The notes under the pieces: model-generated
Seen by the model: only the letters and a program-made list of their open reading frames with translations
Told to the model about the DNA's origin: nothing
Database searches by the model: none
IMG/VR virus record: IMGVR_UViG_3300005577_000087
Coordinates: 1 to 23,431 of that record
Reading direction: 5' to 3' (one strand)
Length of the DNA: 23,431 nucleotides
Source of the DNA: a virus
Made by a program: the position numbers and the translations under genes
Shown here: positions 7,784 through 21,398 of the stretch, piece after piece
Layout of the letters: each line of letters begins with the position of its first letter
How positions within the stretch are numbered: position 1 is the first letter of the stretch

Positions 7784-8860
7784 TCAGATGAGCTTGTAGA
7801 CGCGGATTAGGACCATTCCTGCTGCGCCGGCGTATCCGGGGGTACATTTTGTGGGGTTGTCGTCGAAGGTGCCATAGTCGACACCGCCTTTACCACCCGA
7901 ACCCCCAGCGCCCGGCAACTGTCCATCCGAGCCTTCTGTGCCTCCATTGAGAGGTCCACCACCGCGGCCGTTACCGGTGAAATTCGTTCCAGTAAGGAGG
8001 TCAAGGTTCGCGCCAGCTCCACCCCCACCTCCGCCACCTCCGAAGACGTAAGAGGTACCGGGCCGGTAATCCGTCGGAAACGCCTCAGGCCAAGAACCAT
8101 TACCGCCTCCGTTCATAAGACCAGTTCCGTCGCCACCGCGACCGCCAACAAGATTGAGGATTTGACTCATGTCGGAGTAATATGACGAACCTGAGCCACC
8201 GCCTCCACCGCCTCCACCAGAACCAATGAAGTTCGAGTAGTAATCGGTCGTGGCACTCGTGCCGTCGGTTCTGGGTGCGCCAGATTGACCGCCCGTACCT
8301 CCGCTACCAGCTCCGTCGAAGCCTGTACCACCGGCACCAGCGAATTCGTTTGAAGCAGCGGATCCCGCGGCTCCAAAGTCATTACCAGCTCCTGCGCCAG
8401 CTCCACCTCCACCACCGATCTTGGTGCTGGTTGCGTTTCCACCGGGTGCGCCTTTGCCGCCTCCATATGCGGTGTAGCCCGCAAAAGACGAATCGTTTCC
8501 AGTGGTTCCGAAAGCAGTACGAGCACCACCCGCGACGGATTCAGCGACAACAACTGGATTGCTGGCAGAAAGGCTGGCTAGCGAAAGTGCGAACACGGCT
8601 CTAATGCCGCCAGCTCCGCCTCCTCCGCCTCCTCCACCTCCGTGACGATGTGATGTAGGAAGACCAGGTTCAGCCGATTGACCCCAACCCATTCCTCCAC
8701 CACCGCCGGAGCCACCTCCACCTACAATCCAGGCGTCGTAGGTGTCGTATCCTGCAGCGAGGTACTGTGCGATGGTGAAATCGCCACTCTCTTTGAATGG
8801 CACCCACAAACTGAGCTGAGTTTGCTCAACTGTGGAAGTGCTACCGAACAACAGTCTCAC
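7784..8860 (-). CDS. Glycine-rich minor tail protein / adhesin-like
   Basis: A 358-residue protein. The N-terminal part (about residues 1-45) ends FTIAQYLAAGYDTYDAWIVG, and the rest is dominated by runs of four to nine glycines separated by short loops (for example at residues about 48-55, 74-82 and 214-222). It closes with a conserved-looking GYAGAAGMVLIRVYKLI. Polyglycine sandwich domains of this type occur in phage tail-tip adhesins, such as the S16 gp38 type, where glycine runs form packed polyglycine-II helices and the loops between them contact the receptor. Glycine-rich minor tail proteins are also frequent in actinophages. The start is GTG at 8860 with AGAGGAG upstream. It follows the collagen-repeat protein (stop 8872), suggesting they act together at the tail tip or along the tail. 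Confidence 0.8.
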   Translation of the reverse strand: MRLLFGSTSTVEQTQLSLWVPFKESGDFTIAQYLAAGYDTYDAWIVGGGGSGGGGGMGWGQSAEPGLPTSHRHGGGGGGGGGAGGIRAVFALSLASLSASNPVVVAESVAGGARTAFGTTGNDSSFAGYTAYGGGKGAPGGNATSTKIGGGGGAGAGAGNDFGAAGSAASNEFAGAGGTGFDGAGSGGTGGQSGAPRTDGTSATTDYYSNFIGSGGGGGGGGSGSSYYSDMSQILNLVGGRGGDGTGLMNGGGNGSWPEAFPTDYRPGTSYVFGGGGGGGGAGANLDLLTGTNFTGNGRGGGPLNGGTEGSDGQLPGAGGSGGKGGVDYGTFDDNPTKCTPGYAGAAGMVLIRVYKLI

Positions 8861-9536: not shown

Positions 9537-10235
9537 CTAATCGCTGCTAAGCGTGTACGAATCCGCGTCAATATAGACTGCGGTGGGCCAAGTGAGTTGC
9601 CAAGTAGTGTCGTCGAGCCACACCACTGCTTCGTCAGGACCAATTGCTGTCCATGTTCCGTCTCCGTGGTTGAACACACGAAGAACAGTCATGGTTAGCA
9701 GAAGTTCAAGGAAATAGCCGAACGAAGGCAGTTGAGCAGCATCCGTATCGGTGCCGTAAAGCACATCTTCGAAAGCTGAAACGACGTTATCCGGAATAAG
9801 CGACAAGTCGAGTATGAAGTGAGCTGTCGGCTTAATTCCAGGATACTCGACGGGAACAGTCACGAATTTCCATGAGAATCCCGCCGGAGCAATACTATTC
9901 GTTTCAGTTTTCCATGCCACATCAGATGGCTCTGCGCGGCAATTATAGACGAGATGGATCTGATTGTTTTCTCGGTACGAAAAACCAAACGATCTCGTGT
10001 AGTCCGAGAATTCATCGGGATATGTGAATGCGTCGACGCCAAGAAGGAAATCTCCGACGAATTGTGGGGTCAAATATTTGACGCCATCCAAATATACCGA
10101 ATCGCCTGTCAGTGCATCAGGATTCTCAGTTACGGAGGTAACTCCACTCCACGCAACTGCTCCGGTGGGCAAATATATCACGCACCGATCTATTCCTGCG
10201 CTGTAGTTGTTCTGATCCCAAGTCAGTTTTGACAT
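9537..10235 (-). CDS. Third tail-tube-type protein with distinct C-terminal module
   Basis: A 232-residue paralogue of the two upstream tail-tube proteins. Shared landmarks are MSKLTWDQ, GIDRCVIYLPTGAVAWSG, VYLDGVKYL, FTYPDEF, FGFSYREN, IHLVYNC and KPTAHFILD. It lacks the long insert before FGFSYR and carries a C-terminal extension (about residues 187-232) with 'GDGTWTAIGPDEAVVWLDD' and WPTAVYIDADSYTLSSD, a separate beta module of the kind appended to phage tail proteins. The frame is open upstream to 10436, but the ATG at 10235 gives the conserved MSKLTWDQ start and overlaps the previous stop as TAATG. It could be a minority tube subunit, a tube-end ring or an adaptor for the fibres that follow. 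Confidence 0.75.
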   Translation of the reverse strand: MSKLTWDQNNYSAGIDRCVIYLPTGAVAWSGVTSVTENPDALTGDSVYLDGVKYLTPQFVGDFLLGVDAFTYPDEFSDYTRSFGFSYRENNQIHLVYNCRAEPSDVAWKTETNSIAPAGFSWKFVTVPVEYPGIKPTAHFILDLSLIPDNVVSAFEDVLYGTDTDAAQLPSFGYFLELLLTMTVLRVFNHGDGTWTAIGPDEAVVWLDDTTWQLTWPTAVYIDADSYTLSSD

Positions 10236-10891
10236 TACGACCCCAATAGAGTCGCGATTACCGTCTCCTGAGTTGGAAGTTGCGCGTTGATCTCGAGATC
10301 GTCTGCGAGATCGTTGCCGTACAACAGCGTCTCCAAGTTTGCGAGAGCAGTAGGATCCGCTTTGGTGGAGTCGACAACAAAGTGAGCGGTGGGCTTGTAT
10401 CCTGTGGCCTGAGGTGGTACAGAATTGATCTCCCAAGACAAATCCGTGGGGTCTGCTGTAGTGCTGAGAGTCTTGTTGGCTCTCGAAGTGGGAGAAGCAA
10501 TACAGTTGTACACGAGATGGAGTTTGTAACCGTAGGCCATGCCATCCGTGTCATTCCCGATCAACGTTCGGTAAGAGAACCCGAATCTGGCTCGAGGTTG
10601 CTGTGTTGCGATGAGTCCCGGGGCGAGAGACACGTTTCCGTCGCAGGGATTGAAATCCTCCGGAGCAGAAAACGCGGCAATGGTTGCCTTGTAGTCCTCA
10701 CTCGCAACGACGTCTAGATACTTGACGCCATCGAGATAAATCGGAGTGGTTTCACCACCCAGAGGACTTTCGTCCACCGAAACTAGACCGCTCCAAGATA
10801 CGCCGATCTTTGTTCGGGGGTAGAGAACGCCACGGTCGACTCCTGCTTCGACCAGACGAGTACCTACCTGATCCCAAAGAAGCTTTGTCAT
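10235..10891 (-). CDS. Second tail-tube-type protein (paralogue without Ig domain)
   Basis: A 218-residue protein homologous along its whole length to the first tail-tube protein: 'MTKLLWDQVGTRLVEAGVDR', GVLYPRTKIGVSWSGL, IYLDGVKYLD, FGFSYRTLIGNDTDGMAYGY, KLHLVYNC, YKPTAHFVVDST and LETLLYG. It stops at the end of the tube domain, so the Ig-like C-terminal domain of the first copy is absent. The start is ATG at 10891 with AAAGGAGG upstream, 12 bases after the chaperone stop. The next paralogue overlaps its stop. Its composition (about 53 % GC on sampled lines) is lower than that of the first copy (about 63 %). Expression level and role in the tail are unknown. Confidence 0.75.
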   Translation of the reverse strand: MTKLLWDQVGTRLVEAGVDRGVLYPRTKIGVSWSGLVSVDESPLGGETTPIYLDGVKYLDVVASEDYKATIAAFSAPEDFNPCDGNVSLAPGLIATQQPRARFGFSYRTLIGNDTDGMAYGYKLHLVYNCIASPTSRANKTLSTTADPTDLSWEINSVPPQATGYKPTAHFVVDSTKADPTALANLETLLYGNDLADDLEINAQLPTQETVIATLLGS

Positions 10892-11480: not shown

Positions 11481-11672
11481 CTAGTAGTCGAATGCCCAGT
11501 CGGTGTCGCCCTCGAGGATGTATCCGGACTGCGCCACGGCCTCGACCACTGCGGTCTGACCAGCGGTGAGCGCGGGCTGAGCACCCGAGGCCTTGTTGAC
11601 GCCGTTGACCTTCCACTGGACGCCAGTGACCGCCGGCAGAGTGACCACGTGGGTACCCGAGTCGTAGGTCGG
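11481..11672 (-). other. Ig-like surface domain of the tail tube protein
   Basis: This region encodes the last 63 residues of the tube protein. Its order of landmarks is V-V-T-(L/I)-P, T-G-V, a short K-containing strand, L-T-A-G, A-G-x-T, V-x-A-V, S-G-Y, and a final W-(A/S)-F. The same order is seen at the C-terminus of the major capsid protein. Confidence 0.65.
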
Positions 11673-12359
11673 CTGGTTCGCCGCGGTGTTCAGGTTGACG
11701 TTGGTCGACGTGCCCTCGAAGAGCGCGATCACCTGGTCCGGCGTGGGCAGCTGCGGGCTGGTGCTCGACGTGCCGTACAGCAGATCCTCGAGCTGGCTCA
11801 GCAGCGTGCCGTCGACCTCGGTCGAATCGATCGTCAGCGTGGAGGTCGGCTTGTGGCCGGTCACCGGTACTGGCGTGGTTGAGATCGTCCAGCTGAAGTT
11901 CAGCGCCTCCGGCGAGTCGTTGACCGTCGCGTGCGCCTGCTCCGAGGGAGCTGCCTGGCAGCCGTACACCAGGTGCAGCTTGTAGCCGTAGGCCGTTCCC
12001 TCCTGGTCGTTGCCCTTGAGGGTGCGGTACGACAAGCCGAACACACCGCGGTCCTGCTGACCAACGGTCACACCCGGCGTGGGCGTGGCCTTGCCGTCGA
12101 ACTGCTCGAACTCCTTCGGGTACGTGAAGGCCTCGATGGTGCCGTCGAACTGCTCCGCCGAGATCAGGTTCACGTAAACCTGGTTGTCCGCGTACTGCTT
12201 GTTGGACTCGGCGCCCGAGGGCGACTCGGTGACGGTCGTCAGACCGTTCCAGGCCACGCCATCGTCGTAGACGCCATCGGTGGGGATGTAGAGAACGCCG
12301 TGGTCGACACCGGTCTCGTACTCACGCTCCCCGATGTTGTCCCAAGTGAGCTGGGTCAT
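11481..12359 (-). CDS. Major tail tube protein with C-terminal Ig-like domain
   Basis: A 292-residue protein beginning MTQLTWDNIGEREYETGVDH and containing VAWNGLTTVTESPSGAES, FGLSYRTLKGNDQEGTAYGY, KLHLVYGCQAAPS and LEDLLYGT. These are landmarks of an actinophage tail-tube family. Residues about 230-292 form an Ig-like domain (VVTLPAVTGVQWKVNG, SGYILEGDTDWAFDY), probably displayed on the tail surface. It is the best candidate for the abundant tube subunit because it follows the tail terminator, precedes the chaperone and has markedly GC-rich codon use like the capsid gene. The start is ATG at 12359 with AGAAGGGAAGAAGC upstream. Two diverged copies follow downstream. Confidence 0.85.
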   Translation of the reverse strand: MTQLTWDNIGEREYETGVDHGVLYIPTDGVYDDGVAWNGLTTVTESPSGAESNKQYADNQVYVNLISAEQFDGTIEAFTYPKEFEQFDGKATPTPGVTVGQQDRGVFGLSYRTLKGNDQEGTAYGYKLHLVYGCQAAPSEQAHATVNDSPEALNFSWTISTTPVPVTGHKPTSTLTIDSTEVDGTLLSQLEDLLYGTSSTSPQLPTPDQVIALFEGTSTNVNLNTAANQPTYDSGTHVVTLPAVTGVQWKVNGVNKASGAQPALTAGQTAVVEAVAQSGYILEGDTDWAFDY

Positions 12360-12995: not shown

Positions 12996-13205
12996 TCAGG
13001 CCGGCCGCGTGAACGACCACTGGTCCTGCTGGTCCGACTCGAAGTAGTAGCCGGAAGCGGGAACCGCGATGACGTTCAGCGTGTCTCCAGCCGCGAGAGC
13101 GGTCTGGGCGCCGGCGGTGAGAGTGGCGCTGGTGTCGGCGTTCTTGTAGACCACGCCCGTCTGGGTCGGGATCGTCACCACGCCGGTGGACTCGACGAAG
13201 GTCGG
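12996..13205 (-). other. Ig-like surface domain of the major capsid protein
   Basis: This region encodes the last 69 residues of the capsid protein: VVTIPTQTGVVYKNADTS, LTAGAQTALAAGDTLNVIAV, then PASGYYFES and QWSF. The order of these elements matches the tail tube C-terminal domain. In HK97-fold capsids such appended domains usually project from the outer surface. Confidence 0.65.
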
Positions 13206-14303
13206 CTCGGTGATCGGGTCGACCAGGGTGTCGGACGAGGACTCCAGGTGGACGACCAGCGCCGAACGGATCTTGGTCAGAGCGCCCGAAGCACGGCCCT
13301 CGTAGAGGTACTTGTACTGGTTGTAGTCGATGTCGAAGAAGTCGAAGAAGGTCGTCTCCCCGCCACGGTCGGTGCCGACCGTGTAGTCGCTCAGGTTGAC
13401 GATGATCCCGAACAGGTCGGTCTCGTCCTCCATGACCTCGACGTCGACGATGTCTGCGACGCCCATCTCGGCGGCCAGGTCGGCCCGGGTCCGGTAGAGA
13501 CGCCGGCCCAGCGAGTCGCGGAGCAGGAGCAGATCGGTGACGTTCGGCAGCGTGGTGTAGAGCGTCGGCGAACCGCTGCCCTTGTAGAACCGCTGCGCCT
13601 TGACGAGCTCGTCCATCAGCTTCGTCAGAGCGGTCGTGCTGCCGTCGCCTTTGGTGACGTTGATGTGAGCGGCGTACAGCTCGTGGTCGTTCAGGATCGA
13701 GCGGATGCCGAGACCGTCCTGTGCACCCATGGGGTCCTTGACCTTGTCCTCGTCGCCGACATCGCGGCCGTCGCCGATGAGGATCGCGCGCGCGACTTCC
13801 TCGCGCAGCATCAGCTGCATCTCGCCCTTCATCCAGGCCACCACGTCGAAGTCGGTGATGTCCAGGATGTCGTCGCGGTCGAGCTTCTGCTTCTTGTAGA
13901 TCGTGGTCGGGCCGGTGGTCCGCTTGGAGACGCTGAAGAACTCTTCCTTCTTCAGGTTCCCCTTGATGTAGCCCTTCGCCCGCGCCTCCTCCATGGTGAT
14001 GTCGGCGGTCAGCGACTTGATCCGGCTGAAGGGCGTCTTGCGGGTGCCGTTGATGACTCCCTGCACCCACGCCATCCGTCGCGAATCGAACTGCGGCGTC
14101 GCGTCGACGGACTTGGGGTCCGGGAACAGGACGTCGATGTTGTCGATGTTGTGCTTCAGGGCGTAGCCCTCGACCGCAGCCTTCAGCGAGCCGCAGTTGA
14201 CGGCGTCCTGAACGATCTGCTTCATGTCGTCGTGGCTCAGAGACCGACGCTCGGCCGTCTTGGTGTCGCCACCGTCGTTCTGATCGAAGACGTTACGGGT
14301 CAT
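12996..14303 (-). CDS. Major capsid protein from an internal in-frame start
   Basis: Within the protease fusion, the ATG at 14303 (residue 252 of the fusion, sequence MTRNVFDQNDGG) is preceded by AAGGAAGG with a 7-base spacer. That site is as good as those of the normal genes and is unlikely to arise by chance exactly at the scaffold-capsid junction. It would yield a 435-residue protein containing the capsid fold and the C-terminal Ig-like domain without protease or scaffold. I infer that most capsid subunits come from this start while a minority are made as fusion protein that supplies protease and scaffold. The capsid domain call rests on context and size; the internal start is seen directly. 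Confidence 0.65.
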   Translation of the reverse strand: MTRNVFDQNDGGDTKTAERRSLSHDDMKQIVQDAVNCGSLKAAVEGYALKHNIDNIDVLFPDPKSVDATPQFDSRRMAWVQGVINGTRKTPFSRIKSLTADITMEEARAKGYIKGNLKKEEFFSVSKRTTGPTTIYKKQKLDRDDILDITDFDVVAWMKGEMQLMLREEVARAILIGDGRDVGDEDKVKDPMGAQDGLGIRSILNDHELYAAHINVTKGDGSTTALTKLMDELVKAQRFYKGSGSPTLYTTLPNVTDLLLLRDSLGRRLYRTRADLAAEMGVADIVDVEVMEDETDLFGIIVNLSDYTVGTDRGGETTFFDFFDIDYNQYKYLYEGRASGALTKIRSALVVHLESSSDTLVDPITEPTFVESTGVVTIPTQTGVVYKNADTSATLTAGAQTALAAGDTLNVIAVPASGYYFESDQQDQWSFTRPA

Positions 14304-15056
14304 TTCCGTTCCTTCCTTGTGTTCGAGGTCGCCCTCGTCCTTCTTGTCGGAGTGAGAGGAGCTGGCGCCCTCGATGGCGGCACCTACCATGTACTGAACG
14401 ACCTGCTTCTGTGCGTCGTTCATGGAGTCGTAGATCTCCTGAACGGTGGGATTCTCAGCGGAGTGTTCGACCGCCTCTTCCTCCGTCTTGGAGTCTTCGA
14501 CCTTGTCCGTGTCGTCCTCGGTGGACTCTTCGGATTTGTCCTCGACCTTGTCGTCGGGGACGGTCTCGTCGGTCTTGGACTGCTCGGGCTTGTCCTCGTG
14601 CTCGATGACCAGACCGGTGTAGATGATGGCTTCGCCCTCGATCTCATCGACACTGCCATCGGCGTGACGCACCGCGACCTGATCGATGAACGCGCCGGGA
14701 TTGGCGCCGGCCAGAACGAGGCTGACCTCGCGAATGAAGCCGTGGTAGACCTGCTTGGCCTTCTCGACCAAACCGTTTGCGTAGATCGAAAGGCGAGTGA
14801 TGTCCTTGTGTTGGACAAGGATGTCGGCGTTCTTGCCCTGCGGCGTGCTGTTGAAGTACGCGTAGCCGTAGACGCCATCCGGACGAGCCTCCAGGTCCAC
14901 GTGACCCAGAACGTTGTCTGGGCTGTCGTGACCGTGCTGCCAGACCAGAGGAACCGTCTGCCCATCCATGTGCTGGAACGCTTCGGGCTTGATGGTCCGT
15001 CCGTCGGTGCACTTGAGGTCAGCCCGGGTCACGTAGCCGCTGAAATCAGCTCCCAT
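12996..15056 (-). CDS. Fused prohead protease-scaffold-major capsid protein
   Basis: A 686-residue polyprotein. Residues 1-150 are an HK97-type (S78) prohead protease: VWQHGHDSP with His41/His43, LSIYANG with the probable nucleophile Ser90, and REVSLVLAGANPGA at 109-122. Residues about 150-250 are an acidic linker plus a helical delta/scaffold-like stretch (PTVQEIYDSMNDAQKQVVQY). Residues about 252-610 are the major capsid protein, and 618-686 an Ig-like domain. Expected processing removes protease and scaffold during maturation. I chose ATG 15056 over the upstream GTG 15077 because the AAGGAG ribosome site lies between them. It overlaps the portal stop by 11 bases. A strong internal start occurs at 14303. 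GC content is visibly higher than in the flanking genes. Confidence 0.9.
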   Translation of the reverse strand: MGADFSGYVTRADLKCTDGRTIKPEAFQHMDGQTVPLVWQHGHDSPDNVLGHVDLEARPDGVYGYAYFNSTPQGKNADILVQHKDITRLSIYANGLVEKAKQVYHGFIREVSLVLAGANPGAFIDQVAVRHADGSVDEIEGEAIIYTGLVIEHEDKPEQSKTDETVPDDKVEDKSEESTEDDTDKVEDSKTEEEAVEHSAENPTVQEIYDSMNDAQKQVVQYMVGAAIEGASSSHSDKKDEGDLEHKEGTEMTRNVFDQNDGGDTKTAERRSLSHDDMKQIVQDAVNCGSLKAAVEGYALKHNIDNIDVLFPDPKSVDATPQFDSRRMAWVQGVINGTRKTPFSRIKSLTADITMEEARAKGYIKGNLKKEEFFSVSKRTTGPTTIYKKQKLDRDDILDITDFDVVAWMKGEMQLMLREEVARAILIGDGRDVGDEDKVKDPMGAQDGLGIRSILNDHELYAAHINVTKGDGSTTALTKLMDELVKAQRFYKGSGSPTLYTTLPNVTDLLLLRDSLGRRLYRTRADLAAEMGVADIVDVEVMEDETDLFGIIVNLSDYTVGTDRGGETTFFDFFDIDYNQYKYLYEGRASGALTKIRSALVVHLESSSDTLVDPITEPTFVESTGVVTIPTQTGVVYKNADTSATLTAGAQTALAAGDTLNVIAVPASGYYFESDQQDQWSFTRPA
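14311..14318 (-). promoter_or_regulatory. Internal Shine-Dalgarno sequence for the capsid protein
   Basis: AAGGAAGG is read on the minus strand, 7 bases before the in-frame ATG at 14303 inside the protease-capsid fusion gene. It decides the proposed second start. Confidence 0.65.
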
Positions 15057-16320
15057 TTTGACTGTCTCCTTCCGCACTTGTCGGTGCCTGCCCCGACGGA
15101 GCTGGCGGGTTCTGTGTTTGGTTTGGATTTGGTTGTGGCATGTTGCTGTTCATGAGCTTGTCGGCATTTGGATCCTTCGACGGGACCATTCCCATCGCAC
15201 CTCGAAGCTCATTCGGCGTAACAATTTCGTTCCGCGAAAGTTTGTCCGCAATGGTTGCCAAACCATTATCCCCGCCGATGGGAACCAACTTGAACGGATC
15301 ACGGAAGTACATGATCGACTGTCCCTGCGTTCGCGCCGTCTTGGTCAAGAAGGTGCGTCGCATGGCCTCGACGATGGCCTGGAGAATCGGCTCGACCGTC
15401 CGGTTGTAGTAGTTGAGCATCGTCGCTTCGTCAGCGGTTCCGTTCATGACTTCTTCGGTGATGCCCAGCTGGCTGTACAACAACGCAGTCAGATACTGAA
15501 CCTGGCTCAACAGATTGTTCTCGGCTGGTCGGTTCAGCTGCGTGATCTTTTCGGTTCCGTCAGCATAAGCAATGCCGTACTTGCTTCCGCTGAGTTGGAA
15601 CTCGATGTCCTTGCGGCGTTGTTCAGCTTGCTGCCTACGGCTTTCGGACTTGACGACGTACGGAAGCTGGATGATCAGATCGAGTTTGCCCGAGCCGGAC
15701 TGTTCGTCAACGGCGTCGAGGATGTTTAGCTTCCGAATCAGTCGCTGAAGAGTCGAACTCTTCTCGTTCATCACCAAGTACAACGGGTTCTCGACGATGG
15801 CGACGGACTTCTTCTCCAGAGTGATCTGCTCTCGCAGTCCAGTCCGCTCGTTGTACAGCTCGACTCGAACGTGATACGGATACCAGCTGACGATCTTGCC
15901 GACTCGCATCGTCTGGATGTCGAAACTGGTGCTTTCCGCTGGATTGATCGTCGTATCTACCGGAACAACAGCGATGACGCCCTGATCGAGAAGCGTCAGA
16001 ACCGTGTCGATCTTGAACGCCAATGCGGATTGATCGACATTCGCTTCGACCGTAAGACAATTATGCAAACCATCTCTGATGACGCCGCTGAATCGATCTT
16101 GATCGTCCAGACGAACGTGTTTCAGATCCATGATGCCTGCGTCGATGGCGATGCGAGTAAGAACCGAGGAGACGATCGATCGCTCGTTCGAATAGTGAAC
16201 CCGGTTTCGGTCAGGTCGAGTGCTCGTGACTGTTCCGTAGGCACCAGTGAAGACTTCTTCTGGTTCCTGTCGAGTGAACGCATTCCATGCGTGCTTCAAC
16301 CGCGAACCGAGTGTTGCCAT
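15046..16320 (-). CDS. Portal protein (HK97 family)
   Basis: A 424-residue portal protein, forming the dodecameric ring at the capsid vertex through which DNA enters and leaves. Typical family landmarks are 'NERSIVSSVLTRIAIDAG' near residues 44-61, VSWYPYHVRVELYNERTG mid-protein, the 'YLTALLYSQLGITEEVMNGT' stem/wing helix region, and 'LSRNEIVTPNELRGAMGM' near the C-terminus. The C-terminal tail is Pro/Gln/Asn-rich and low-complexity. It lies directly after the large terminase and overlaps the protease-capsid gene by 11 bases. The ATG at 16320 has a strong GAGGAGGTGA site. Length is normal for the family. Confidence 0.92.
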   Translation of the reverse strand: MATLGSRLKHAWNAFTRQEPEEVFTGAYGTVTSTRPDRNRVHYSNERSIVSSVLTRIAIDAGIMDLKHVRLDDQDRFSGVIRDGLHNCLTVEANVDQSALAFKIDTVLTLLDQGVIAVVPVDTTINPAESTSFDIQTMRVGKIVSWYPYHVRVELYNERTGLREQITLEKKSVAIVENPLYLVMNEKSSTLQRLIRKLNILDAVDEQSGSGKLDLIIQLPYVVKSESRRQQAEQRRKDIEFQLSGSKYGIAYADGTEKITQLNRPAENNLLSQVQYLTALLYSQLGITEEVMNGTADEATMLNYYNRTVEPILQAIVEAMRRTFLTKTARTQGQSIMYFRDPFKLVPIGGDNGLATIADKLSRNEIVTPNELRGAMGMVPSKDPNADKLMNSNMPQPNPNQTQNPPAPSGQAPTSAEGDSQNGS

Positions 16321-16333
16321 GTGTCACCTCCTC

Positions 16334-18079
16334 TCACTCGAATGCCTCCTTGTTGAGTTTGTACGCGACGTAGGCGTCCATCAATGCGGACACGTTGTCG
16401 ATCTTCTCTTCCTGTCGCTTCTTTAGAAGCTTGCGGTTCCCGTTTGTGTCCTCCAGTGTGATCGCATTGCCCATAGCGAACGTCATCAACCCTTGATCGA
16501 AGATGAGCATTCGCTCCTCGCTGAGCTTCTTCAACTCACCGAGAGGAACAGACTCGGTCTTTGCCCCCTGGATTACCTTCTCGATGCCATATGGACCGTT
16601 CTCAGCTTCCCAGCGAGTCACGAATTCTTTGGCGTTATAGGGGTCGTAGCCTAGAGTACGAACGTCGTACTCGGATTGCTCAATGAAGGCATCCAAATCG
16701 TCGTAGACTTCCATCATGTCGAGAACGGTTCCCTCGAGGACGTGCAAACTGCCCTCGTTGATGAACTCGTCGTACTTATGGCGCATGGCGCCAGGCAAAC
16801 GCATGAGAGTCAACGATGTGATGTAGCTTCGAGTCTTGATTCCAAACTTCTCACCGTCGAGTGGGAAGAGGAGCGTGAACGCACAGAAGTCATCACCCTG
16901 CGAAAGGTCGGCACCAAGCGAACAAGGCAGTCGCCAGAAGTCTCGCGGACGATGCGGAAGAGTTTCCTCATAAGTGAAGAAGTAGGTGTAACCCTCCATA
17001 GGGATACCGAACCGTTTCGCAAGGATGTCGTTCCTTGCAGCTGGCGCTTTTTCGGCTCTTTCGACATCTAGTTGATATGTCTCGTAAGAAACTGTCAACC
17101 CTATGTTCGGATTCGCCTTTGGCCACATGGCAGGATCGGCAACTTCTTCGATTTCGTCCAGCTTGTAATGCCAGATCGAAACATGTGGTGCATAGTACTC
17201 GCCTTTGAGGATGTCAGCGAGTTCCATTTTGATTGTGTCGCCTGAACCGTTACGAACAGTTCCCTCTGAAGAGATGGCAACGATCAAGTAGTCTTCGAGT
17301 TTGGACGCGCCTTGCTCGACCGCACCAACTACATCTTCACGAAGGTCGCCAGAGAGCCATTCGTCGATCGTTGAAACCTTAGGACGCAAGCCTTGCAGCT
17401 TGTTGATGGCCATTGGCCGAATCTCAAGCAGAGATCCAGTCAAGAAGTTCTCGATCCCCTTTTTGGTCGACGCTAACTTCTGACGCAACCACTTAGCGCC
17501 AGTAGTATTCTGCATCGAGCCTTCGGTGAGGAACTTGAACAGCGGTCCACGCGCGCGCGTGATAGCCGTCCGAATAGGTGACATCACTTCGTCTGCTTGT
17601 TTCATTGTTGGCGCGGTGGTGATTTGGTGTGTCGTCGAAGTGTCGACATTCAAGAAGTAGCTTTGGATGAACGAAGCGTACATCGACTTCGCTGCGCCAC
17701 GAGCGACAATCAAATACTGCTTCGTAACTAGACGCTTTTTTATCGTCTTCTTAACGTAACGTCCACCATGATTGTCTTTCGACGGTTGATAGACACTGCG
17801 TTCAACGAAGTAATACCAGCCGAAAATCTGTTCGGCCCAGAGTTTGAATGACGGAAGCAGATGCACATCGCTACCGTCTGTTAGCGTAAGCTCGTTCTCA
17901 CAGTAGAGTATGAAACCGTCCACTGCTTTGTCGTCGTAGAAGAAGTTTGGGTTGGCAATGAGCGCATCGATCCGGTTCATCTCCATTGCGATTTCACGGT
18001 TGACCGGAATCTCGCCTCGGAGTACCGCGTCGCGGAATTCGCCGTAGTATCTCGGCGTCGCCGTATTCGACAGGCCCAT
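16334..18079 (-). CDS. Terminase large subunit (DNA packaging ATPase/nuclease)
   Basis: A 581-residue protein, the motor that packages and cuts phage DNA. The ATPase domain has a Walker A-like VARGAAKSM at residues 125-133 and a Walker B-like VSTIDEW at 235-241 with the catalytic Glu240. The coupling region includes 'EDYLIVAISSEGT'. The nuclease domain begins with SLGADLSQGDDFCAF (Asp391 as probable metal ligand) and includes GYDPYNAKEFVTRWE. This arrangement matches HK97-type large terminases. The ATG at 18079 has AAAGAGGTGAGC upstream and is 12 bases after the preceding stop. The packaging ATPase is separated from the small subunit by about 5 kb of lysin, connector and fibre genes. Confidence 0.95.
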   Translation of the reverse strand: MGLSNTATPRYYGEFRDAVLRGEIPVNREIAMEMNRIDALIANPNFFYDDKAVDGFILYCENELTLTDGSDVHLLPSFKLWAEQIFGWYYFVERSVYQPSKDNHGGRYVKKTIKKRLVTKQYLIVARGAAKSMYASFIQSYFLNVDTSTTHQITTAPTMKQADEVMSPIRTAITRARGPLFKFLTEGSMQNTTGAKWLRQKLASTKKGIENFLTGSLLEIRPMAINKLQGLRPKVSTIDEWLSGDLREDVVGAVEQGASKLEDYLIVAISSEGTVRNGSGDTIKMELADILKGEYYAPHVSIWHYKLDEIEEVADPAMWPKANPNIGLTVSYETYQLDVERAEKAPAARNDILAKRFGIPMEGYTYFFTYEETLPHRPRDFWRLPCSLGADLSQGDDFCAFTLLFPLDGEKFGIKTRSYITSLTLMRLPGAMRHKYDEFINEGSLHVLEGTVLDMMEVYDDLDAFIEQSEYDVRTLGYDPYNAKEFVTRWEAENGPYGIEKVIQGAKTESVPLGELKKLSEERMLIFDQGLMTFAMGNAITLEDTNGNRKLLKKRQEEKIDNVSALMDAYVAYKLNKEAFE

Positions 18080-18091
18080 TGCTCACCTCTT

Positions 18092-18949
18092 TCAGCCAGC
18101 TATGACTGCGGCACCCACCTTCATGGCGGCTTTGGCAGCGAGCTTTGGTAGATGTTGACGACCGAGTCGCTTCAGCTCTTCCTCGATCAGCTTCTGTGCG
18201 TCACTCTTCGGTTTGGTGTTGAGACGCTTGAACTCCGCCTCGAGACCGAGTCGCTTGTTGAGGGACTTCAGTTCCTCGTTGCTGAGTGCGCTGACGCCCG
18301 ACCGACGAGCCTTCTGGTGCGACGTCTTAGCGGCCGCGGCGTCTGGATGCGTAGGATGACCGGAGCCCGGCCGATCCTTTCGGACGCCCCACTTCATGCC
18401 CTTTACGCCGTGATGCTCGAGAATGTTGTCGATGACGTCGCTCATGGCCATGTCTGGCTCTAGTGTCATGTTGACCTCGAGTTCGAACGTAGGACCGGCG
18501 TAGTTCTCGGTCCACACGGCGATCTTGTCGAAGCTTACCCAGTTGATTCCCGGGTAATCTCGATTGTCAGGTTTCGCCGGAGTGGCCGGAAAGCCGAGGG
18601 TAAGGTGTGGCGTCCACTCGGGGAATTGCGTCGCCGAGTCGTAAGCCGTCTTGATGTTGTTGTCCTTCAACAGATAGGACCGGAAGTCCTTGACGCGCTT
18701 TAGATCCCACGCGTCGCTGAAGAAGAGAACATCAGCGTCTTCTGGACCGAGCAAACCGCGGCGGTCGACATCGAGTCCGAACCGCGTGAGAGAAGTCTCT
18801 GCTGCGTGCTCGGTGTAGTTGACGATCTGATCGATGTTTGCTGGGTTTGATCCGAGGAACAGAATCGTTAGATGCGGAATCTTCTCGCTTGAGACTTTCC
18901 ACACCGGATCGTCTTCTCTCGGAATTGCGACAATAGCTACTCCTGCCAT
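18092..18949 (-). CDS. 2H-phosphoesterase-like protein fused to a GVKGMKWGVR head motif
   Basis: A 285-residue two-part protein. Residues 1-165 resemble 2H phosphoesterases (LigT/CPDase fold), with two H-x-T motifs, PHLTILF (His26, Thr28) and PHLTLGF (His115, Thr117), about 90 residues apart, the usual separation. Family members open 2',3'-cyclic phosphates or cleave cyclic nucleotides. Residues 179-190 are HHGVKGMKWGVR, a motif widespread in phage head-gene products. It is followed by LSNEELKSLNKRLGLEAEF and a basic helical tail. Directly upstream of the large terminase, it is probably a virion or head-assembly protein carrying an enzyme. ATG 18949 is chosen over GTG 18964 because GAGGAGG lies between them. 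Substrate is unknown. Confidence 0.75.
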   Translation of the reverse strand: MAGVAIVAIPREDDPVWKVSSEKIPHLTILFLGSNPANIDQIVNYTEHAAETSLTRFGLDVDRRGLLGPEDADVLFFSDAWDLKRVKDFRSYLLKDNNIKTAYDSATQFPEWTPHLTLGFPATPAKPDNRDYPGINWVSFDKIAVWTENYAGPTFELEVNMTLEPDMAMSDVIDNILEHHGVKGMKWGVRKDRPGSGHPTHPDAAAAKTSHQKARRSGVSALSNEELKSLNKRLGLEAEFKRLNTKPKSDAQKLIEEELKRLGRQHLPKLAAKAAMKVGAAVIAG

Positions 18950-18960
18950 GAAACCTCCTC

Positions 18961-20439
18961 TCACGTGGCAAAGTACTCGACGAGCACTCCGTAGGTTTGC
19001 GCCGAAGTCGGAGCGGCAGCACCAACTGTAATCGGCGTGGTGGTATCTGACGAAGCAGCAGTAGCGTGAATTGTGCCCATCGCTGCTGGGCCGCCAGAGA
19101 AATAATGGGTTGACGCTGGACTACTATCGACTGCAGAACTCGCATCGAAACTAGAAACGTCTGTCGAAGGATTTCGTTGTGAGTAATGAAGGCAGAACAA
19201 CGATCCAACTTGTGTCGGCGTAGCCGTAGCTTCTGCGGTCGATGTGTTGTTTAGCACTGCGGCCACAAGAGGCGGCGTATTCGCAGCGTTCTCTATCGCT
19301 CCAACCCACGTTCCACAAGGACCATTGCTGCTGAACGTCCAGGTGATGGTGACCGATGTTGTGACGTCAGAGCCGGTGTCATTATACCAACCCCATACAC
19401 CTTGTCTTTGTGTTAGATCGAAATCTTGGATCGTGGTCCACGTGTGACTGTCGCTATCTGAAATTGCTAGATCGTCACCAGTCTGACCAGCCTGCCAACA
19501 TGCGTGCACGATTCCCCACGCTCCAGTCGGAATCGTTACCGAAACGGTATGCATCGCAGTAGGACTGGAAATACTTTCAGCAATCGTCGAAAGATAATCG
19601 ACAACCGCAGCACTGAGTGTGATTTCGTCCAAAGGCGGACCGCTAATCCCACCAGCCACAACCCACGAAGTTCCGTCGAATCCTGCCATTGGATGACTTG
19701 TCCAGGACGAACCGTCCCATACCTTGGCATCATGTGGATTCCACGAGGTTCCATCCCAGACTTTCGGTTTTCCCGAACGACCGAGAGAGAAATCGAAACT
19801 CGGTGGATCCGCAGACATGGTCCACGGCCCGCTACGCGAAGCCTCAGTTCCTCCTCCAGCAAGATCCACGAATGGCTCAGCGAGACCGCCGGCTTCGGGA
19901 AAATGCACGAAGAACTGAGGACCAGCATCGAGAATCGCTTTTGAGCTCCGGAGGAAAATTGCCTCGATCTCTGCGTTGCTCAACTTCGACGTCCAAGCAG
20001 CGAGAAGGGCCATGTCGCCCTCCATGCCATTGGCGAACTCGTCTCCGATGGAGAAACGATTCATGTTCTGATAGTTCGCACGTGTCCCATTCATGAAACT
20101 ATGCGACCAGGTCAGTACGCCAGACTCGGAATACGTGGCAACGTGAGATTCAGGCGCCACATCCCCTTCCATCTTCGCGGTAATCAGCCAGTACCAATGC
20201 GAGGACGAAATATCGAGGAAATCGGTTGACTGCTTGAAGTTGTTCCACAAACTTCCGTCGAAATATAGGTTCACCTGTGCGAAGTTCTCGGGCTGATAGG
20301 CGTACCACAGATTTGAATCCTTGCCAGGAAGGTTCTGGAACAAGCACGCGACAGTGTACGGAGCACTTGGGAGCGTTGGACAACCGGGCGAGAATATGCT
20401 CAGGTGCTCAGCGAAATCAGTGCTTCCGTGAAGGCTCAT
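18961..20439 (-). CDS. LamG-like minor tail/fibre protein
   Basis: A 492-residue protein. Residues about 10-165 look like a concanavalin/LamG jelly-roll: 'YTVACLFQNLPGKDSN' opening, 'HWYWLITAKMEGD' central strands, 'FSIGDEFANGMEGDMALLA' and a closing AAWTSKLSNAEIEAIF. Residues 224-261 hold three short repeats of the type (K-V-W/G-F)-D-G-(T/S)-S-W. Residues about 265-492 are another beta-rich domain ending YGVLVEYFAT. Such modules occur in actinophage minor tail proteins that bind cell-surface glycans. The frame is open up to 20565, but the ATG at 20439 overlaps the stop of the preceding fibre gene (ATGA). That coupling suggests the two proteins form one complex. Confidence 0.75.
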   Translation of the reverse strand: MSLHGSTDFAEHLSIFSPGCPTLPSAPYTVACLFQNLPGKDSNLWYAYQPENFAQVNLYFDGSLWNNFKQSTDFLDISSSHWYWLITAKMEGDVAPESHVATYSESGVLTWSHSFMNGTRANYQNMNRFSIGDEFANGMEGDMALLAAWTSKLSNAEIEAIFLRSSKAILDAGPQFFVHFPEAGGLAEPFVDLAGGGTEASRSGPWTMSADPPSFDFSLGRSGKPKVWDGTSWNPHDAKVWDGSSWTSHPMAGFDGTSWVVAGGISGPPLDEITLSAAVVDYLSTIAESISSPTAMHTVSVTIPTGAWGIVHACWQAGQTGDDLAISDSDSHTWTTIQDFDLTQRQGVWGWYNDTGSDVTTSVTITWTFSSNGPCGTWVGAIENAANTPPLVAAVLNNTSTAEATATPTQVGSLFCLHYSQRNPSTDVSSFDASSAVDSSPASTHYFSGGPAAMGTIHATAASSDTTTPITVGAAAPTSAQTYGVLVEYFAT

Positions 20440-20987
20440 GAGCTCGTGTCGATCCAGACATCTCCGACGGCAGGGCCGGACGGAGCGGTGGTTGCGACGG
20501 TGATGGTGGGTCCGGTGTAGTCGGCGCCGTCTGCTCCGGCAGGACCGACGAGAGAGGCAAGCCACTCAGACTCAGTACCACTGAATCCATCGGACATTGC
20601 GATCTCGTACGCGGATTGTCCATCCGTGCCAGGAGCTCCAGGACTTCCCGGGGCACCAGGAGTACCTGGGTCACCTTGGTCTCCCTTCGGACCAACGAGA
20701 GAAGCCAGCCATTCTGCTTGTGTGCCGACGAATCCGCCGTCTACAGCTAGCTGATAAGACGACTCTCCCGCTGGCCCTTGGACCCCATCGATGACAGCCT
20801 GCGCGATCAATGCGCCGACGCCTGTTTCATCGATGAAGTAGTGAAGTGTTGTCCAAGACTGAACACCGTCGCCAATCTTGAACTTGTTCGTGTCGATCTC
20901 GACGCCGATCTCGCCTGGAAGAAGGATGGGATTCTTGGTCACCCAATCCGCAGCGGTGTCTCGCCGATGTTCGATGCGCCACGCCAT
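20436..20987 (-). CDS. Mtd-N / collagen-like fibre protein
   Basis: A 183-residue protein. Residues 1-50 (MAWRIEHRRDTAADWVTKNP; ILLPGEIGVEIDTNKFKIGD) match the N-terminal beta-prism domain seen in major tropism determinant-type and other phage fibre proteins. Two copies of a 24-residue unit follow (SYQLAVDGGFVGTQAEWLAS and AYEIAMSDGFSGTESEWLAS, each leading into LVGP), separated by collagen-like G-x-y triplets (GDQGDPGTPGAPGSPGAPG). It ends 'TAPSGPAVGDVWIDTSS', a segment that in related fibres usually leads into a further C-terminal domain. Here it stops and the LamG-like gene begins with a 4-base overlap. ATG 20987 has TAGGAGGGCAGC upstream. Confidence 0.75.
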   Translation of the reverse strand: MAWRIEHRRDTAADWVTKNPILLPGEIGVEIDTNKFKIGDGVQSWTTLHYFIDETGVGALIAQAVIDGVQGPAGESSYQLAVDGGFVGTQAEWLASLVGPKGDQGDPGTPGAPGSPGAPGTDGQSAYEIAMSDGFSGTESEWLASLVGPAGADGADYTGPTITVATTAPSGPAVGDVWIDTSS

Positions 20988-20996
20988 GCTGCCCTC

Positions 20997-21398
20997 CTAG
21001 GCCGAACCGCCGTCGATGATTACGTCGTCGGGTGGAGGCTCCATTGTGGGATCCACCCAGGCCGTCTCCTCTCGATACACGTTGAGACGCCACTCGAGTT
21101 CTTCGATTTGTCGTTCCATGGACTCGATTGTGAATGACGTCGCTGGCGGATCGAAGAGAAGACGGACCCGAAGCGTGACGTATGTCTTTACTGCGTTCAG
21201 ACGAGGGTCACTGCCGAGGAAATCCGACCACACGGCCGCGCTGTCCTCGATTGCGAAGCCGGCCTCCGGGCCGATCCCCAATTGGTTGAGCGTGAAGAAG
21301 ACCGAGTTGATGTGCATGATCACGTCTGGATCAAACGCGGTGTAATCAGCGTCGAGGCCGATGTTCTTCTTCGTACTATCGAGAATGCTGTCGGTCAT
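20997..21398 (-). CDS. Head-tail connector, gp6-like
   Basis: A 133-residue mostly helical protein: MTDSILDSTKKNIGLDADYT, 'FDPDVIMHINSVFFTLNQLG', 'LNAVKTYVTLRVRLLFDPP' and 'MERQIEELEWRLNVYREET'. The pattern (helix with HINSVF-x-x-LNQLG, then K-x-Y-V-x-L-x-V-x-x-L-F-D-P-P) is that of gp6-like connector (adaptor) proteins binding under the portal. In most siphoviruses this gene follows the capsid gene. Here it lies about 6 kb upstream of it, between the endolysin and the fibre genes. The ATG at 21398 has the strongest ribosome site in the window, AAAGGAGGTGA, set in a possible hairpin loop. Confidence 0.7.
   Translation of the reverse strand: MTDSILDSTKKNIGLDADYTAFDPDVIMHINSVFFTLNQLGIGPEAGFAIEDSAAVWSDFLGSDPRLNAVKTYVTLRVRLLFDPPATSFTIESMERQIEELEWRLNVYREETAWVDPTMEPPPDDVIIDGGSA

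What the first reader, a model, noticed from the sequence alone, without database searches (positions are those of the whole stretch)
18092..18949. 2H phosphoesterase fused to a phage head motif: a possible virion-carried cyclic-nucleotide or RNA phosphodiesterase
The protein has two H-x-T motifs (residues 26-28 and 115-117) at normal 2H spacing and, after a short linker, the head-associated HHGVKGMKWGVR motif followed by a helical basic tail. 2H enzymes include T4 Acb1, which destroys CBASS signalling nucleotides, and enzymes acting on 2',3'-cyclic ends of tRNA. Coupling such a domain to a motif found in capsid-gene products, directly upstream of the terminase, suggests an enzyme packaged in the capsid and injected with the DNA, giving protection before any phage gene is expressed. 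The domains are read from sequence; packaging and anti-defence activity are inference.
Basis: partly seen in the sequence, partly recalled or inferred. Interest (0 to 1): 0.8.

Follow-up and report, generated by a model that had tools for sequence, protein, structure and literature searches.

The report
Phage enzyme with capsid-loading tag
A soil phage gene fuses a nucleotide- or RNA-cutting enzyme (2H phosphoesterase) to a short peptide tag that recurs on up to nine neighbouring, strongly basic head-block proteins in related phages, so the enzyme is probably carried inside the virus particle and delivered with its DNA, although neither step has been shown by experiment.

Summary
AlphaFold gives a confident 2H fold (pLDDT about 96 over residues 1-160; VIA Z up to 12.9 to cyclic phosphodiesterases/LigT, 8.5 to Acb1). 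Both HxT motifs are invariant in 44 homologues down to 25% identity, so an active enzyme is very likely. It is not an Acb1 by the Pfam Acb1 model. The GVKGMKWGVR motif is Pfam DUF7211. In 11 phage genomes all 54 copies lie between the gene just before terL and the portal gene, mostly at protein N-termini, on proteins that are otherwise largely unrelated but 98% net basic (untagged neighbours 15%). The syntenic protein of Lactococcus phage 1706 is annotated 'structural protein'. The same 2H domain is fused instead to MuF/protease or portal in phages that lack the tag. Best reading: a virion cargo enzyme loaded by a T4-CTS-like tag, probably injected to destroy a nucleotide signal or process RNA ends. 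Packaging is well supported indirectly; injection and substrate are inference. Iyer et al. 2017 already proposed injected 2H-MuF and 2H-portal effectors; the tag-based route is the new part.

The parts
18092..18949 (-). complete gene: 2H phosphoesterase plus DUF7211 tag plus basic helical tail, 285 aa
18470..18949 (-). 2H phosphoesterase domain, residues 1-160
   Evidence: AlphaFold pLDDT about 96; PDB matches
18866..18874 (-). first catalytic motif H26-L-T28
   Evidence: H26 and T28 invariant in 44 homologues
18599..18607 (-). second catalytic motif H115-L-T117
   Evidence: H115 and T117 invariant
18368..18439 (-). DUF7211 tag (PF23847), residues 171-194, core HHGVKGMKWGVR; candidate capsid-loading peptide
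   Evidence: predicted disordered alone (pLDDT under 50 at 180-196)
18095..18361 (-). basic helical tail, residues 197-285
16334..18079 (-). terminase large subunit, next gene downstream
   Evidence: phrog_9 E 6.6e-112
15046..16320 (-). portal protein
   Evidence: phrog_12 E 1.1e-38
12996..15077 (-). head maturation protease, probably a protease/major capsid fusion
   Evidence: phrog_3270 E 8e-230; same-position genes annotated as protease-capsid fusions
20997..21398 (-). connector / virion structural protein (likely counterpart of Lactococcus phage 1706 orf6)
   Evidence: PF24829 E 6.3e-40; phrog_4247 E 3.9e-53

Best explanation
A virion-cargo enzyme. The DUF7211 tag and basic tail bring the protein into the prohead beside the DNA-packaging machinery; the acidic N-terminal 2H domain rides along and is released into the host with the phage DNA, where its HxT/HxT site cuts a small nucleotide or processes RNA ends at the start of infection. 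Most likely targets are defence nucleotides or 2',3'-cyclic / 2'-5' linked RNA ends. Shown here by computation: 2H fold, invariant catalytic tetrad, tag, genome position, alternative fusion to MuF or portal. Inferred: packaging (about 0.75), injection (about 0.55), use against a host nucleotide signal or RNA-damage defence (about 0.45).
For: Fold: Foldseek E 1.8e-6 to Arabidopsis CPDase; VIA Z 12.9 CPDase, 12.7 YjcG, 12.5 LigT, 11.7 rotavirus VP3 PDE, 9.2 poxvirus cGAMP PDE, 8.5 Acb1. Catalytic residues invariant in 44 homologues. Head coupling: 52 of 52 untruncated tagged relatives have terL downstream, 44 within 100 nt; the same 2H domain is in Microbacterium/Arthrobacter/Curtobacterium capsid maturation protease or MuF fusions and in the Hendrix portal, and the four such phages tested carry no tag. 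Tag: 54 of 54 places in 11 genomes lie in the block from the gene before terL to portal, 8.4% of the bases. With the tag masked, 107 of 118 within-genome protein pairs show no similarity. Tagged proteins: median +6.9 charges per 100 aa, 98% positive, against -2.9 and 15% in untagged neighbours; the basicity does not come from the tag. Phage 1706 orf7, same position, two tags, is annotated 'structural protein'. Precedent: T4 internal proteins are loaded by a 10-residue N-terminal CTS (PMC9026906).
Against: No virion proteomics for any 2H/tag protein could be read. The basis of the 1706 'structural protein' label (Garneau 2008) could not be checked, and 1706 orf7 has no 2H domain. In this protein the tag is internal, not N-terminal. 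No substrate evidence. Tag statistics come from related phages and are not independent.
Confidence: 0.55

Rival explanations
1. The tagged proteins are prohead core, scaffold or terminase-portal assembly factors. They work only in the producing cell, and the 2H domain is a late-expressed enzyme tethered to the assembly site that is not delivered.
For: Tagged genes cluster at terL-portal and the tagged gene before terL is found even in phages with one tagged protein (Annihilus gp6, 131 aa) and in Firmicutes prophages, as for an assembly role. Tagged proteins are basic.
Against: Repeated acquisition of enzymes (2H, GNAT, a papain-fold/glutamine-deamidase-like domain) and of 2H onto MuF or portal is easier to explain by delivery than by assembly.
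Confidence: 0.25
2. Injected RNase or RNA-end enzyme that attacks or repairs host RNA (Usb1-like or LigT-like) rather than a cleaver of defence nucleotides. This is a substrate variant of the best explanation and overlaps with it.
For: Closest folds are CPDase, LigT/ThpR and Usb1 (Z 12-12.9); Iyer et al. 2017 favoured an RNase role for 2H fused to MuF or portal.
Against: Fold closeness does not set substrate: rotavirus VP3 2',5'-PDE (Z 11.7) and cGAMP PDE (Z 9.2) share it.
Confidence: 0.35
3. An Acb1 orthologue that disables CBASS.
For: Acb1 shares the 2H fold and HxT/HxT site (VIA Z 8.5; PMC9117128).
Against: No Acb1 Pfam match in 44 homologues against 2.7e-60 for T4 57B; profile comparison aligns only 30 residues around the second HxT.
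Confidence: 0.07

Closest known systems
2H domains fused to MuF or portal in phage polyvalent proteins (Iyer et al. 2017, PMC5512222)
   Same: 2H domain coupled to a head protein; proposed injection; proposed action on RNA or nucleotide signals
   Different: here the head module is a DUF7211 tag with a basic tail encoded just before terL, not MuF or portal
T4 internal proteins and Alt with the capsid targeting sequence (PMC9026906)
   Same: short peptide shared by several otherwise different, basic, head-internal proteins; several cargoes per phage
   Different: DUF7211 is about 24 residues, can be internal or repeated, no cleavage site shown; different phage lineage; loading untested
Acb1 (T4 gene 57B), anti-CBASS nuclease
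   Same: 2H fold and HxT/HxT tetrad
   Different: not matched by the Acb1 family model; T4 Acb1 carries no head tag
LigT/ThpR RNA 2',3'-cyclic phosphodiesterase and Arabidopsis CPDase
   Same: closest solved folds (Z 12.5 and 12.9); Pfam LigT_PEase / 2_5_RNA_ligase2 superfamily
   Different: 13-14% identity, cellular enzymes without head tag; TIGR02258 equivalog score 18.9 against cut-off 65.7
Rotavirus VP3 C-terminal 2',5'-phosphodiesterase
   Same: compact 2H domain that is part of a virion protein and destroys a host defence nucleotide; Z 11.7, TM up to 0.66 by target
   Different: eukaryotic RNA virus; 15-18% identity; substrate here unknown

Membership tests
2H phosphoesterase superfamily | two HxT motifs, conserved | tested here: met
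2H phosphoesterase superfamily | bilobal 2H alpha/beta fold | tested here: met
   model pLDDT about 96 for residues 1-160; Z 12-12.9 to many 2H structures
2H phosphoesterase superfamily | phosphodiesterase activity dependent on both His | not testable with these tools
   needs purified protein
Acb1 (PF23474) | match to family model | tested here: not met
   no match at E 0.01 in any of 44 members; T4 57B control 2.7e-60
Acb1 (PF23474) | cleavage of CBASS cyclic nucleotides | not testable with these tools
   needs enzyme assay
ThpR/LigT equivalog (TIGR02258) | score over the curated cut-off of 65.7 bits | tested here: not met
   18.9 bits
DUF7211 (PF23847) | score over the gathering cut-off of 27 bits | tested here: met
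   48.5 bits; 52.4 bits in the six-frame search of the record
Capsid targeting sequence (T4 CTS-like) | shared short peptide on several otherwise unrelated proteins of the head block | tested here: met
Capsid targeting sequence (T4 CTS-like) | N-terminal position | tested here: inconclusive
   N-terminal in most tagged proteins but internal, residues 171-194, in this one
Capsid targeting sequence (T4 CTS-like) | peptide is needed and enough for loading into the head | not testable with these tools
   needs deletion and fusion tests
Phage polyvalent/injected effector | fusion of an enzyme domain to a head module, encoded among packaging genes | tested here: met
Phage polyvalent/injected effector | protein present in virions and delivered to the cell | not testable with these tools
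   needs virion MS and a translocation assay

The most novel reading that the evidence does not exclude
DUF7211 (HxGVKGMKWGVR) is a general capsid-loading signal of a large lineage of Gram-positive phages (1706-like, with fused protease-capsid gene). It marks banks of one to nine basic cargo proteins and enzymes, the 2H phosphodiesterase among them, that are carried in the head and delivered at infection, as a counterpart of T4's CTS in siphophages.
Probability: 0.5. Interest if true: 0.8.

Novelty: new variant of a known kind. Interest (0 to 1): 0.62.

Why it matters
If right, an unnamed 24-residue motif becomes a sequence handle for reading out the injected cargo of hundreds of sequenced Gram-positive phages, many of them isolated on culturable laboratory strains. 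It would make protein delivery by siphophages directly testable and would give a tag for loading chosen proteins into phage heads. The 2H enzyme would be a case of protection or host takeover that is in place before any phage gene is expressed.

Tried and rejected
Acb1 membership: rejected as a family assignment. ThpR equivalog: below cut-off. PADLOC: no match. PDB by sequence: no significant 2H match, only 1vdx at E 1.1 with the profile, so the fold rests on structure prediction and Pfam profiles. Bacterial genomes: no 2H relative found with the alignment or the protein, only tag proteins in Firmicutes and other gut MAGs; the scans use few peptide patterns, so this is weak. Literature: 'GMKWG' finds no phage paper and DUF7211 none. 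Garneau 2008 and the ReqiPepy6 paper are not held. The domain found beside the tag in longer relatives (alignment A2) has helices plus four strands and no clear PDB match, best Z 6.6; I suspected a MuF-C/BECR-like RNase but found nothing for it. The mycobacteriophage A10ZJ24 gp48 paper concerns a metallophosphoesterase, unrelated. The window has no tRNA or Rfam element.

Full report
Observation. The gene runs on the minus strand from an ATG at 18949 to a stop at 18092 (285 aa), with AGAGGAGG in front of the ATG. Pfam sees weak LigT/2'-5' RNA ligase matches, just below cut-off for this single protein, and a strong DUF7211 match; across 44 homologues 41 match the 2'-5' RNA ligase superfamily, best 2.1e-9. 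The window is a 23.4-kb virus record from IMG/VR, a fragment.

Fold and active site. AlphaFold on an alignment of 44 homologues gives pLDDT about 96 over residues 1-160 and under 50 over the tag. The domain matches 2H enzymes: Arabidopsis cyclic phosphodiesterase (Foldseek 1.8e-6; Z 12.9), YjcG 12.7, LigT 12.5, Usb1 12.3, rotavirus VP3 PDE 11.7, poxvirus cGAMP PDE 9.2, Acb1 8.5. Seventeen of 160 columns are invariant, among them H26, T28, H115 and T117 (chance about 9e-5). A catalytically competent 2H phosphoesterase is the only good reading.

Relatives and architecture. In 54 IMG/VR loci the 2H domain stands with one to three copies of the tag (one lineage has it as HHGVKGQKWGVRR), sometimes with further domains between tags, including a GNAT acetyltransferase (L023). 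In 52 of 52 untruncated cases terL lies downstream, in 44 within 100 nt. TerL is about 77-87% identical to the window's, the 2H domain only 49-64% and the tail after the tag about 21%. In named phages the same gene sits before terL in Streptomyces Bingvirus, Gordonia Deejayvirinae and Rhodococcus ReqiPepy6, annotated as phosphoesterase, RNA ligase or unknown. In Microbacterium, Arthrobacter and Curtobacterium phages the same 2H domain (33-36% identical in the five IMG/VR cases measured) is instead inside capsid maturation protease / MuF fusions, and in phage Hendrix it is at the end of a portal protein. Four phages of this second kind contain no DUF7211 at all. One enzyme domain joined to three different head modules is the strongest argument that the head is where it has to be.

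The tag. A whole-genome scan of 11 tagged phages finds 54 DUF7211 places. All lie between the gene just before terL and the portal gene, a block that is 8.4% of the bases (gene tables). Most tags are at residues 6-25 of their protein, in runs of up to nine genes, e.g. DDFLAHYGVKGMKWGV. With the tag masked, 107 of 118 within-genome pairs are not similar. Tagged proteins are strongly basic: median +6.9 per 100 aa and 98% positive, against -2.9 and 15% for 124 untagged neighbours (Mann-Whitney p 1e-18, not corrected for relatedness), and stay so with the tag masked. This protein fits the pattern as an acidic enzyme on a basic tag-tail. Firmicutes prophages show tagged proteins flanking a terL of the same kind. 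Lactococcus phage 1706 orf7, directly before terL, has two tags, no 2H, and is annotated 'structural protein'; from memory that label came from a virion proteome, but the paper is not held.

Mechanism. I take the tag as a capsid-loading peptide analogous to the T4 CTS, which targets basic internal proteins and can carry foreign cargo (PMC9026906). The tag would bind a prohead component during assembly, the basic tail would stay with the DNA, and the 2H domain would be delivered on infection. Shown: fold, catalytic residues, tag, position, charge, alternative head fusions. Inferred: packaging, injection, substrate. Whether it destroys a defence nucleotide or acts on RNA ends cannot be decided from fold; it is not an Acb1 by family model and lies nearer the LigT/CPDase group.

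Known or new. Iyer et al. 2017 reported 2H fused to MuF and portal in phages and proposed both the RNase and the anti-nucleotide reading (PMC5512222), so the idea of a virion 2H effector is not new. I found no description of the DUF7211 motif or of its restriction to the terL-portal block, within a library that lacks most subscription papers. I therefore call it a new variant of a known kind, with the tag as the more interesting part.

Noticed in passing
L093:11669-13213 (Gordonia phage Mossy gp17): Two tags, a GNAT acetyltransferase and a weak papain-fold/glutamine deamidase match (E 6.6e-5): a likely multi-domain cargo effector.
   Followed up: partly
L023:3365-4882: Tag, GNAT acetyltransferase, 2H and a second tag in one protein.
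   Followed up: partly
L067:4130-4618 and relatives in L016, L019, L021, L042, L052, L053, L058, L066, L085: Recurrent domain of about 160 aa next to the tag with an invariant His (RVxHAD); helices plus four strands, no clear PDB match.
   Followed up: yes
L021, L050, L066, L067, L085 (N-terminal or internal parts): Recurrent segment IEQWHAACLIHLHxGxPTSKSxCKLPVKTPNGALNRNGVHAAAAALAGARSPL in tagged proteins; it looks like a separate domain.
   Followed up: no
L100, L101, L103, L104, L105, L107: Firmicutes and other gut prophage-like contigs with tagged proteins around a terL of about 581 aa; L103 uses a GQKWGVR variant.
   Followed up: partly
window 9537-10436, 10235-10891, 11481-12359 (minus): Three ORFs with shared sequence (e.g. 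GVDRGVLY / GVDHGVLY, FSYRTL / LSYRTL), probably duplicated major-tail-type genes; related phages also have two or three major tail genes.
   Followed up: no
window 18961-20565 (minus): 534-aa protein with no Pfam or PHROG match between the 2H gene and tail-fibre-like genes; possibly a receptor-binding protein. In many relatives the 2H gene follows the connector directly.
   Followed up: no
window 7784-8860 (minus): Very glycine-rich 358-aa protein in the tail region, no Pfam match.
   Followed up: no
L017:1501-2535 and L018: 2H protein whose tag reads HHGVKGQKWGVRR (Met to Gln), so GMKWG searches miss a variant lineage.
   Followed up: partly
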